Assembly (NCBI RefSeq): GCF_026651855.1
Contig: NZ_CP093280.1
Span: 660,001 to 724,000, forward strand
DNA from: Pseudomonas silvicola
Lineage (GTDB): Bacteria > Pseudomonadota > Gammaproteobacteria > Pseudomonadales > Pseudomonadaceae
Direction of reading: 5' to 3'
Length of the DNA: 64,000 nucleotides
The translations under genes and the position numbers were made by a program. The notes under the pieces are model-generated. The model searched no databases, was not told where the DNA came from, and worked only from the letters and a program-made list of their open reading frames with translations. Every line of letters begins with the position of its first letter. Position 1 is the first letter of the stretch. Shown in pieces: positions 20,581-25,125 of the stretch.

Positions 20581-23500
20581 TCAGGACAACGCCTCAAGCT
20601 CCGCCTGCATTGTTTCCAGGGTTTCAAGGGCCATCATCCAGGCTTCCTCAAGCTCGGCTTCACGCACTTTCAGCTTGGCCTGCTGGGCCAGCTGATCGCG
20701 CAGCTCGTCCTTGCGACCCGCTTCGTAAATGCCGCTATCACCCAATGCCGACTCGACCTTGGCCAACTGTTCATGAAGCTTGCCCAGCTCGGCTTCCAGC
20801 TTGTCGGCCTCGCGCTTGTGCGGGGCCAACTGCTGGCGCAGGGCGGCCGCGGCCTGGCGCTGGGCTTTCTTGTCGGTCTTGTCGGCGTTGACCGGGGCGT
20901 TGCTGACCGGCGCGTTGCGCTGACGGTAGTCCGCCAGCCAACGGGTATAGTCATCCAGGTCGCCGTCAAAGGCCTCGACCTTGCCATCGGCCACCAGCAG
21001 GAAGTCGTCGGTGGTGCTCTTGAGCAGGTGCCGGTCGTGGGAAACCACCAGTACCGCGCCGCTGAACTCTTGCAGGGCCATGGTCAGCGCCAGGCGCATT
21101 TCCAGGTCCAGGTGGTTGGTCGGTTCGTCGAGCAACAGCAGGTTCGGGCGTTCCCAGGCGATCAGCGCCAGCGCCAGGCGAGCTTTCTCGCCGCCGGAGA
21201 AATTCAGCACCGGCTCGTCGATACGGCCGCCACGGAAGTCGAAACCACCGAGGAAATCGCGCAGCGTCTGTTCGCGCTCGGTGGGCGCCAGGCGTTGCAG
21301 GTGCAGCAACGGGCTGGCCTTGCTGTCCAGCGAGTCCAGCTGGTGCTGGGCGAAATATCCCACAGTGAGGTTTTCGCCGCGCACCAGGCGCCCACCGATG
21401 GGCGACAGCTCGCCGGCCAGGTTCTTGATCAGGGTCGACTTGCCCGCGCCGTTGGGGCCCAGCAGGCCGATGCGCGCGCCTGGGGTCAGTTGCAGCTTGA
21501 CCTTCTCCAGCACCACCTTGTCGCCGTAACCCAGACGGCCTTCGGACAGGTCCAGCAGCGGGCTGGAGATCTTGTGGGACTCGCGGAACACGAAATCGAA
21601 CGGCGAATCGACGTGGGCGGCCGACAGCTCTTCCATGCGCTCCAGTGCCTTGATCCGGCTCTGTGCCTGGCGGGCCTTGGTGGCCTGGGCCTTGAAGCGC
21701 GCAATGTACTTTTCCATGTGCGCGCGCTGGGCCTGCTGTTTCTCGTAGGCTTGCTGCTGCTGGGCCAGGCGTTCGGCACGGGCCCGCTCGAACGCCGTAT
21801 AGCCGCCGCGGTACAGGGTCAGCTTGCATTGTTCGACATGAGCCACGTGGTCGACCACGGCATCGAGGAAGTCCCGGTCGTGGGAAATCAGCATCAAGGT
21901 GCCGGGGTAGCTCTTGAGCCACTCTTCCAGCCACAGGATGGCGTCCAGGTCCAGGTGGTTGGTCGGCTCGTCGAGCAGCAGCAGGTTCGGGCGTTCCCAG
22001 GCGATCAGCGCTAGCGCCAGGCGAGCTTTCTCGCCGCCGGAGAAATTCAGCACCGGCTCGTCGATACGGCCGCCACGGAAGTCGAAACCACCGAGGAAAT
22101 CGCGCAGCGTCTGTTCGCGCTCGGTGGGCGCCAGGCGTTGCAGGTGCAGCAACGGGCTGGCCTTGCTGTCCAGCGAGTCCAGCTGGTGCTGGGCGAAATA
22201 TCCCACAGTGAGGTTTTCGCCGCGCACCAGGCGCCCACCGATGGGCGACAGCTCGCCGGCCAGGTTCTTGATCAGGGTCGACTTGCCCGCGCCGTTGGGG
22301 CCCAGCAGGCCGATGCGCGCGCCTGGGGTCAGTTGCAGCTTGACCTTCTCCAGCACCACCTTGTCGCCGTAACCCAGACGGCCTTCGGACAGGTCCAGCA
22401 GCGGGCTGGAGATCTTGTGGGACTCGCGGAACACGAAATCGAACGGCGAATCGACGTGGGCGGCCGACAGCTCTTCCATGCGCTCCAGTGCCTTGATCCG
22501 GCTCTGTGCCTGGCGGGCCTTGGTGGCCTGGGCCTTGAAGCGCGCAATGTACTTTTCCATGTGCGCGCGCTGGGCCTGCTGTTTCTCGTAGGCTTGCTGC
22601 TGCTGGGCCAGGCGTTCGGCACGGGCCCGCTCGAACGCCGTATAGCCGCCGCGGTACAGGGTCAGCTTGCATTGTTCGACATGAGCCACGTGGTCGACCA
22701 CGGCATCGAGGAAGTCCCGGTCGTGGGAAATCAGCATCAAGGTGCCGGGGTAGCTCTTGAGCCACTCTTCCAGCCACAGGATGGCGTCCAGGTCCAGGTG
22801 GTTGGTCGGCTCGTCGAGCAGCAGCAGGTTCGGGCGTTCCCAGGCGATCAGCGCTAGCGCCAGGCGAGCTTTCTCGCCGCCGGAGAAATTCAGCACCGGC
22901 TCGTCGATACGGCCGCCACGGAAGTCGAAACCACCGAGGAAATCGCGCAGCGTCTGTTCGCGCTCGGTGGGCGCCAGGCGTTGCAGGTGCAGCAACGGGC
23001 TGGCCTTGCTGTCCAGCGAGTCCAGCTGGTGCTGGGCGAAATATCCCACAGTGAGGTTTTCGCCGCGCACCAGGCGCCCACCGATGGGCGACAGCTCGCC
23101 GGCCAGGTTCTTGATCAGGGTCGACTTGCCCGCGCCGTTGGGGCCCAGCAGGCCGATGCGCGCGCCTGGGGTCAGTTGCAGCTTGACCTTCTCCAGCACC
23201 ACCTTGTCGCCGTAACCCAGACGGCCTTCGGACAGGTCCAGCAGCGGGCTGGAGATCTTGTGGGACTCGCGGAACACGAAATCGAACGGCGAATCGACGT
23301 GGGCGGCCGACAGCTCTTCCATGCGCTCCAGTGCCTTGATCCGGCTCTGTGCCTGGCGGGCCTTGGTGGCCTGGGCCTTGAAGCGCGCAATGTACTTTTC
23401 CATGTGCGCGCGCTGGGCCTGCTGTTTCTCGTAGGCTTGCTGCTGCTGGGCCAGGCGTTCGGCACGGGCCCGCTCGAACGCCGTATAGCCGCCGCGGTAC

Positions 23501-25089: not shown

Positions 25090-25125
25090 GTGCGCGCGCT
25101 GGGCCTGCTGTTTCTCGTAGGCTTG
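21101..25125. repeat. 843-bp direct tandem repeat, 4 full units plus a 653-bp partial
   Basis: Units begin at about 21101, 21944, 22787, 23630 and 24473; the last is cut at 25125 by the algP junction. They are essentially identical apart from three silent positions. Unit 1 reads T21124, A21135, C21169. Units 2, 3 and 4 read C, G, T at the equivalent sites (21967, 21978, 22012 and +843 each). Unit 5 reads C24496, A24507, C24541. All three sites lie around the codons for the LLLLDEPTNHLDL motif that both domains of a normal ABC-F gene share, the expected site of unequal crossing-over. Confidence 0.95.

What the first reader, a model, noticed from the sequence alone, without database searches (positions are those of the whole stretch)
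20581..25125. ABC-F ATPase gene with five ATP-binding domains from an in-frame 843-bp amplification
Seen: four full plus one partial tandem copies of 843 bp (281 codons) keep one open frame of 1502 codons, with five Walker A, five signature and five Walker B motifs. Known: YheS-type ABC-F proteins have two such domains in about 640 residues. Inference: the unit corresponds to the distance between the two LLLLDEPTNHLDL coding sites of the normal gene, so unequal crossing-over between the two domains made the array. If real, this would be a poly-domain ABC-F protein or an unstable amplification under selection.
Basis: partly seen in the sequence, partly recalled or inferred. Interest (0 to 1): 0.88.

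Follow-up and report, generated by a model that had tools for sequence, protein, structure and literature searches.

The report
Falsely expanded ABC-F gene array
A stretch that reads as a giant ATPase gene with five copies of its engine is most likely a false expansion made during genome assembly: the same assembly carries other near-identical local copies in unrelated genes, and close relatives carry the ordinary two-engine gene at this place.

Summary
The array is in the sequence as described: 843-bp units, one open frame of 1502 codons, five Walker A, signature and Walker B motifs. It does not look like a working poly-domain ABC-F gene: the start and front of domain 1 (native residues 1-169) are missing here, and elsewhere in the genome only distant paralogues match. 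Its 5' end is joined, at 7 bp of shared sequence, to a broken algP-like gene. The same assembly has enlarged ettA, msbA and cysNC frames and other near-exact local duplications: 11 clusters in 1,324 kb, against 0 in 800 kb of four relatives. Its 85-kb contig is an exact dimer; its 953-kb contig resembles Pantoea megaplasmids. Nine of nine differences between the copies scored are synonymous, as expected of mixed strains. Of 248 relatives, 243 give one match to the two-domain protein. I judge an assembly expansion most likely (0.65), a real short-homology rearrangement possible (0.28), a functional five-domain protein unlikely (0.04). No reads were available.

The parts
20581..25089 (-). 1502-codon open frame: five ABC_tran and five ABC_tran_Xtn stretches
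24514..25125 (-). partial first copy: linker plus front of domain 2, joined upstream to the algP-like gene
23671..24513 (-). 843-bp unit counted from one Walker B start to the next: Walker B, back of domain 1, linker, front of domain 2
22828..23670 (-). 843-bp unit, same make-up
21985..22827 (-). 843-bp unit, same make-up
21142..21984 (-). 843-bp unit, same make-up, leading into the native end of the gene
20581..21141 (-). native Walker B, back of domain 2 and C-terminal extension
24466..24528 (-). hybrid junction 1 (domain 2 to domain 1), TTG and GAG codons
23623..23685 (-). hybrid junction 2, CTG codon (with CTA 34 bp upstream)
22780..22842 (-). hybrid junction 3, as junction 2
21937..21999 (-). 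hybrid junction 4, as junction 2
25119..25125 (-). 7-bp CAAGCCT shared by the algP-type repeats and the ABC-F linker: left-hand join, in place of about 1.4-2.0 kb present in M47T1 and L18
24858..25934 (-). algP-like reading frame (name recalled) with lysine/alanine repeats, 3' end lost; its tail past the join is ABC-F sequence read out of frame
   Evidence: no Pfam match

Best explanation
The 843-bp array is in the contig, but it is most likely a false expansion made when a strain-mixed sample was assembled, not a five-domain gene of the living cell. In the normal gene the two ABC domains share short identical stretches at their Walker B coding sites, so a wrong join there leads from domain 2 back into domain 1 and would add one 843-bp loop per pass (inferred). 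The contig goes round this loop four times and, on the other side, jumps from the repetitive algP-like gene into the loop at a 7-bp match, losing the start of the ABC-F gene (joins shown, cause inferred). Two kinds of hybrid junction, differing by synonymous changes, suggest that sequences of two strain variants were mixed (inferred). The true locus is predicted to be an intact algP-like gene followed by a 636-residue YheS-type gene, as in Pseudomonas sp. M47T1.
For: Excess in the same assembly: 11 clusters of near-exact direct repeats (500 bp or more, at most 1% mismatch, within 20 kb) in 1,324 kb of C1, 0 in 4 x 200 kb of relatives. Two of the four C1 blocks were taken because they held a known case (ABC-F, ettA); without these two it is 9. 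Three of the 11 (C1:1842640, 5327328, 5341644) may be natural repeats. Enlarged frames in G000: EttA 921, MsbA 885, CysNC 984 codons, against 600-676 (11 of 12 relatives matched), 605-688 (12 of 12) and 635-657 (12 of 12; one of them has also a weaker 696-codon match). The only MsbA-model matches above cut-off are the two parts of the enlarged frame (that msbA is essential is recalled). Copy differences are 9 of 9 synonymous: msbA 2, obgE 5, ABC-F 2. C3 is 84,880 bp, an exact repeat of 42,440 bp. C2 (GC 0.536, against 0.63 for C1) resembles Pantoea plasmids; the listed contamination is 8.04%. One match in 243 of 248 relatives. Front of the gene absent from G000 except for distant paralogues.
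Against: A 7.6-Mb contig suggests long reads, which should span a 3.7-kb array. Junction matches of 7-20 bp are shorter than usual assembly words and look like physical recombination. C2, from the same assembly, has no such cluster in 340 kb (two shorter repeats of 301 and 319 bp with 5 and 31 mismatches). A second complete MsbA-like frame (600 codons, C1:6631368, 486 bits, under the cut-off of 602) exists, so loss of msbA need not be lethal. An error that only adds copies would not by itself remove the front of the gene. No read data could be seen.
Confidence: 0.65

Rival explanations
1. The array is a real rearrangement in the sequenced cells: template switching or unequal crossing-over at short repeats duplicated the unit, recombination multiplied it, and a second event deleted the front of the gene; the result is a broken, probably unexpressed gene in part or all of the population.
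For: Junctions have short direct matches (7, 8, 14, 16, 20 bp), as reported for spontaneous duplications and deletions in Salmonella (abstract of PMC3411829). In the 1,324 kb of C1 scanned, inverted near-exact pairs of 150 bp or more were 22 within an intergenic repeat family and one pair 120 kb apart, which argues against amplification chimeras. C2 of the same assembly has no cluster. The array keeps one frame.
Against: Would need many such events fixed in one genome, msbA included; nine of nine copy differences are synonymous; four relatives have none in 800 kb. mutS and mutL are intact, so loss of mismatch repair does not explain it. Keeping the frame is automatic when homologous domains exchange.
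Confidence: 0.28
2. A functional five-domain ABC-F protein is made and used.
For: Open frame, ATPase motifs intact in five copies; three-module ABC-F proteins occur in protein sets, some with diverged modules (P0019/P0020, 73% between modules).
Against: No native start, no clear ribosome-binding site before ATG 25089 (by eye), frame conflict with the algP-like gene, front of domain 1 lost, all five cores of domain-2 type. No expanded copy among the relatives listed (listing cut); no exact match to the junction pattern in the GTDB r220 collection (records near the own genome may be left out).
Confidence: 0.04
3. Whole-genome amplification of the DNA before sequencing produced chimeric molecules that entered the assembly.
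For: Short-homology joins at several loci.
Against: From recall such chimeras are mostly inverted; none was seen close by outside a repeat family.
Confidence: 0.03

Closest known systems
YheS-type ABC-F ATPase (NCBIfam NF007921, PRK10636; YheS subfamily of PMC6723617, passages seen)
   Same: Array pieces are 93-95% identical to the matching parts of a relative's 636-aa protein; best NCBIfam match is NF007921.
   Different: Five ABC modules instead of two; native residues 1-169 missing; no native start.
Long-read assembly duplication artefacts (PMC6966772, passages seen: start/end overlap of circular contigs)
   Same: Duplication of a circular contig: C3 = 2 x 42,440 bp, exact.
   Different: The passages concern contig ends, not internal 0.8-3 kb duplications.
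Spontaneous short-homology rearrangements in bacteria (PMC3411829, abstract and outline seen)
   Same: Short direct repeats at the end points of duplications and deletions.
   Different: There they are unique junctions in a population; here several stand in one consensus sequence.
Three-module ABC-F proteins in public protein sets (P0001, P0012, P0013, P0019, P0020, P0028)
   Same: An extra module of 281-284 residues.
   Different: Front domain intact, one extra module; each is a one-member cluster, itself perhaps an assembly product.

Membership tests
YheS-type ABC-F | ABC_tran domains separated by the ABC_tran_Xtn linker | tested here: met
   5 ABC_tran and 5 ABC_tran_Xtn stretches
YheS-type ABC-F | two ABC domains, order domain 1 - linker - domain 2 | tested here: not met
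   five modules; front of domain 1 absent
YheS-type ABC-F | full-length match to NF007921 | tested here: not met
   best stretch covers 170-635 of 638; the whole-protein score of 2213 comes from 5 stretches. The native L18 protein matches 1-635 but scores 837, under the cut-off of 917.
YheS-type ABC-F | own start codon and ribosome-binding site | tested here: not met
   first ATG lies in the linker; the sequence before it shows no clear site by eye
YheS-type ABC-F | ribosome-linked function | not testable with these tools
   needs experiment
Assembly expansion | excess of near-exact local copies elsewhere in the same assembly | tested here: met
   11 clusters in 1,324 kb of C1 (9 without the two that led to the choice of blocks) against 0 in 800 kb of relatives
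Assembly expansion | seen on all contigs of the assembly | tested here: inconclusive
   C2 none in 340 kb, about 2.8 expected at the C1 rate (own arithmetic); C3 is an exact dimer
Assembly expansion | reads do not support the copies (depth or spanning reads) | not testable with these tools
   no reads held
Spontaneous short-homology duplication | short direct repeat at the junction | tested here: met
   8, 14, 16, 20 bp at four duplications, 7 bp at the algP join
Spontaneous short-homology duplication | copies identical or carrying random mutations | tested here: inconclusive
   the ettA and 918-bp copies are identical; in msbA, obgE and the ABC-F array 9 of 9 differences are synonymous, and 5 of 5 in the 3,303-bp copy fall within 523 bp

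The most novel reading that the evidence does not exclude
This Pseudomonas genome is really in a state of runaway short-homology recombination that uses the nearly identical coding sequences of nucleotide-binding motifs as exchange sites, building multi-module NTPases: a five-module ABC-F (Walker B), a three-module EttA (signature), an MsbA with a repeated transmembrane part (next to Walker A) and a rearranged CysN/CysC (P-loop).
Probability: 0.13. Interest if true: 0.75.

Novelty: not a real feature. Interest (0 to 1): 0.2.

Why it matters
As an artefact it is a warning: an open frame with intact motifs can be manufactured by joins at conserved motif coding sites, and a genome listed as 99.99% complete can hold broken core genes. 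Protein sets may contain more such three-module ABC-F proteins. If real, it would show directly how extra ATPase modules are added to ABC-F proteins.

Tried and rejected
Rejected: ABC-F-specific selection (the same kind of duplication is seen in msbA, cysNC and multi-gene blocks). Rejected: loss of mismatch repair (mutS and mutL intact). Rejected as main cause: amplification chimeras. Of no help: Tandem Repeats Finder, whose longest period is 500; the plasmid collection, which gave only distant ABC-F pieces; the self-BLAST part, which returned nothing and was replaced by pairwise alignment. One search printed mostly a run of N and was cut in its first block; one search repeated the scan without N and with stricter limits. 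Three further C1 pieces of 12 kb each gave no repeat of 300 bp or more and were not.

Protein search: one search scored only the 7,982 candidates sharing most words and listed 120 of 3,667. Of these 120, 38 have three DEP[ST]N-type motifs; the modules compared are 55% identical or more in 10 of them and 26-41% in the other 28 (mixed paralogues, or joins between them).

Papers: 'abc-f' with 'three abc domains' (0 papers), with 'domain duplication' (1 listed, seemingly unrelated), with 'unequal crossing'; these cover the held open-licence library only. Listings (0), 50 and 71 were seen; from 71 one abstract was opened, from 58 and 59 one paper each by passages.

Results against my reading: C2 has no cluster in 340 kb; junction matches are short for assembly words; a second MsbA-like frame is intact.

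Full report
Observation. The open frame 20581-25089 (-) is 1502 codons with five copies at 843-bp spacing. Copies 2-4 are identical, copy 1 differs at two positions. Motif positions in the protein are Walker A 87, 368, 649, 930, 1211; signature 174, 455, 736, 1017, 1298; Walker B 193, 474, 755, 1036, 1317. Pfam finds five ABC_tran and five ABC_tran_Xtn stretches.

What the units are. Compared with a relative's 636-residue protein (L010), each unit is the linker and front of domain 2 up to Walker B, followed by the back of domain 1. After Walker B four copies read DAILWLEE (domain 1) and the last reads EMRLALTM (domain 2). The two sites share exact runs of 23, 13 and 23 nt there.

What is missing. 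Residues 1-169 of the native protein, with the first Walker A and the start, are not in the array; a search of the own genome with the native protein (E up to 1e-20) matched them only in paralogues of 32-36% identity. The frame begins at an ATG inside the linker, and I see no clear ribosome-binding site before it. Upstream lies an algP-like gene (name recalled, from gene order and AKPA-type repeats; no Pfam match) cut off at CAAGCCT, 25119-25125. That heptamer occurs several times in the algP repeats and once in the ABC-F linker of L180 and L184. By alignment about 1.4 kb (L180) to 2.0 kb (L184) of native sequence is replaced by the join.

Relatives. In one search, 58 of 58 other genomes gave one match. 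In one search, of 248 other genus genomes 243 gave one match, 3 gave two (G034, whose gene is frame-broken; G088 and G224, not looked at), 2 gave none. Its match listing was cut; the relatives listed span residues 1-636 or 1-635 in frames of 645-752 codons. The hybrid junction pattern has 4 matches in the window and no exact match in the GTDB r220 collection, where records near the own genome may be left out. The nearest named loci are Pseudomonas sp. M47T1 and 'gamma proteobacterium L18' (92% over a neighbouring protein, HemX-like by recall), both with the ordinary gene.

The rest of the assembly. G000 has 8,650,947 bases in three contigs, completeness 99.99, contamination 8.04. A uniform scan (direct repeats of 500 bp or more, at most 1% mismatch, within 20 kb) gave 11 clusters in four C1 blocks totalling 1,324 kb, none in 340 kb of C2, and none in 200 kb each of G005, G017, G010 and G003. 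Two blocks were chosen because they hold the array and ettA; three clusters (C1:1842640, 5327328, 5341644) may be natural repeats. The remaining eight lie in what look like core gene regions: purA-hisZ-hflC, msbA, the window array, ettA, an FKBP-type isomerase block, ispB-rplU-rpmA-obgE, cysDNC, and groESL with an RND pump (gene names by eye). Four tandem duplications have junction overlaps of 8 (msbA), 14 (918 bp), 16 (ettA) and 20 bp (3,303 bp). With 9 unseeded clusters in 1,324 kb, about 5.4 would be expected in 800 kb (own arithmetic). Frames in G000 and relatives: EttA 921 against 600-676 (11 of 12 relatives matched at 1e-150), MsbA 885 against 605-688 (12 of 12), CysNC 984 against 635-657 (12 of 12, plus a weaker second match of 696 in G184). 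A second MsbA-like frame of 600 codons in G000 is complete but scores under the model's cut-off.

Strain mixture. Differences between copies: two in msbA, five in obgE, two in the ABC-F array; nine of nine are synonymous; the ettA and 918-bp copies have none. The five in the 3,303-bp duplication lie within 523 bp. This is what standing strain variation looks like rather than random mutation after duplication. C2 (GC 0.536) aligns over 71% of one 20-kb piece at 82% identity, and over 36% of another at 77.5%, with Pantoea megaplasmids, and C3 is an exact dimer of 42,440 bp. Inference: a mixed or binned sample.

How it most likely arose. A join at the shared Walker B site returns the path from domain 2 into domain 1, each pass adding 843 bp; the neighbouring algP repeats make the same 3 kb hard to assemble, and the path enters the loop from there. 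The joins are shown; cause and sample type are inferred. Weak points: matches of 7-20 bp are short for assembly graphs, a 3.7-kb array should be spanned by long reads, and C2 is clean. A real short-homology process is reported from Salmonella cultures (abstract of PMC3411829); that each junction is individually rare there, and that a low-depth assembly could capture such molecules, is my inference. I therefore keep 0.28 on a real rearrangement and 0.04 on a functional five-domain protein.

Known kinds. ABC-F proteins of the YheS subfamily are described in PMC6723617 (passages seen); 'three abc' had no occurrence there. In the protein set, 38 of the 120 listed hits show three Walker B-type motifs; ten have modules at least 55% identical. 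P0019 and P0020 (824 of 826 residues identical, two contigs) have modules 73% identical, so a lasting three-module ABC-F may exist, but mixed assemblies of relatives could give the same picture.

Noticed in passing
L070:4600-7329 (G000:C1:1874599-1877325): EttA gene with one extra 846-bp unit, joined at the signature-motif coding site; 909 codons, front intact.
   Followed up: partly
L097:11933-13512 (G000:C1:371933-373512): msbA with an in-frame 786-bp tandem copy; its frame holds the only MsbA-model matches above cut-off in the genome.
   Followed up: partly
L104:5257-14229 (G000:C1:1885257-1894229): A 918-bp duplication followed by a 3,303-bp duplication of ispB-rplU-rpmA-obgE (names by eye) with five synonymous differences.
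   Followed up: partly
G000:C1:2036866-2041084: cysDNC region duplicated and cut; a short frame joins CysN to CysC at the P-loop GKSTL.
   Followed up: partly
G000:C1:310773-322171: purA-hisZ-hflC (names by eye), 4,053 bp, repeated exactly 7.3 kb away.
   Followed up: no
G000:C1:2099629-2112956: fxsA-like gene near groESL and part of an RND pump gene repeated; neither RND frame looks complete.
   Followed up: no
G000:C3 (84,880 bp): Exact tandem dimer of a 42,440-bp element resembling Pseudomonas plasmids.
   Followed up: partly
G000:C2 (952,764 bp): GC 0.536 and colinear matches to Pantoea megaplasmids: probably from another organism in the sample.
   Followed up: partly
G000:C1:5115564-5388808: Repeat family of about 160 bp in arrays, in both orientations.
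   Followed up: no
G000:C1:37501-40000: A run of 2,500 N.
   Followed up: no
proteins P0003 and P0004: 1,166 and 1,169 residues with four Walker A motifs: look like a YheS-type and a second ABC-F protein fused head to tail, in two different proteins.
   Followed up: no
proteins P0019 and P0020: 826-residue ABC-F proteins with three modules, two of them 73% identical: a candidate for a lasting three-module ABC-F.
   Followed up: partly
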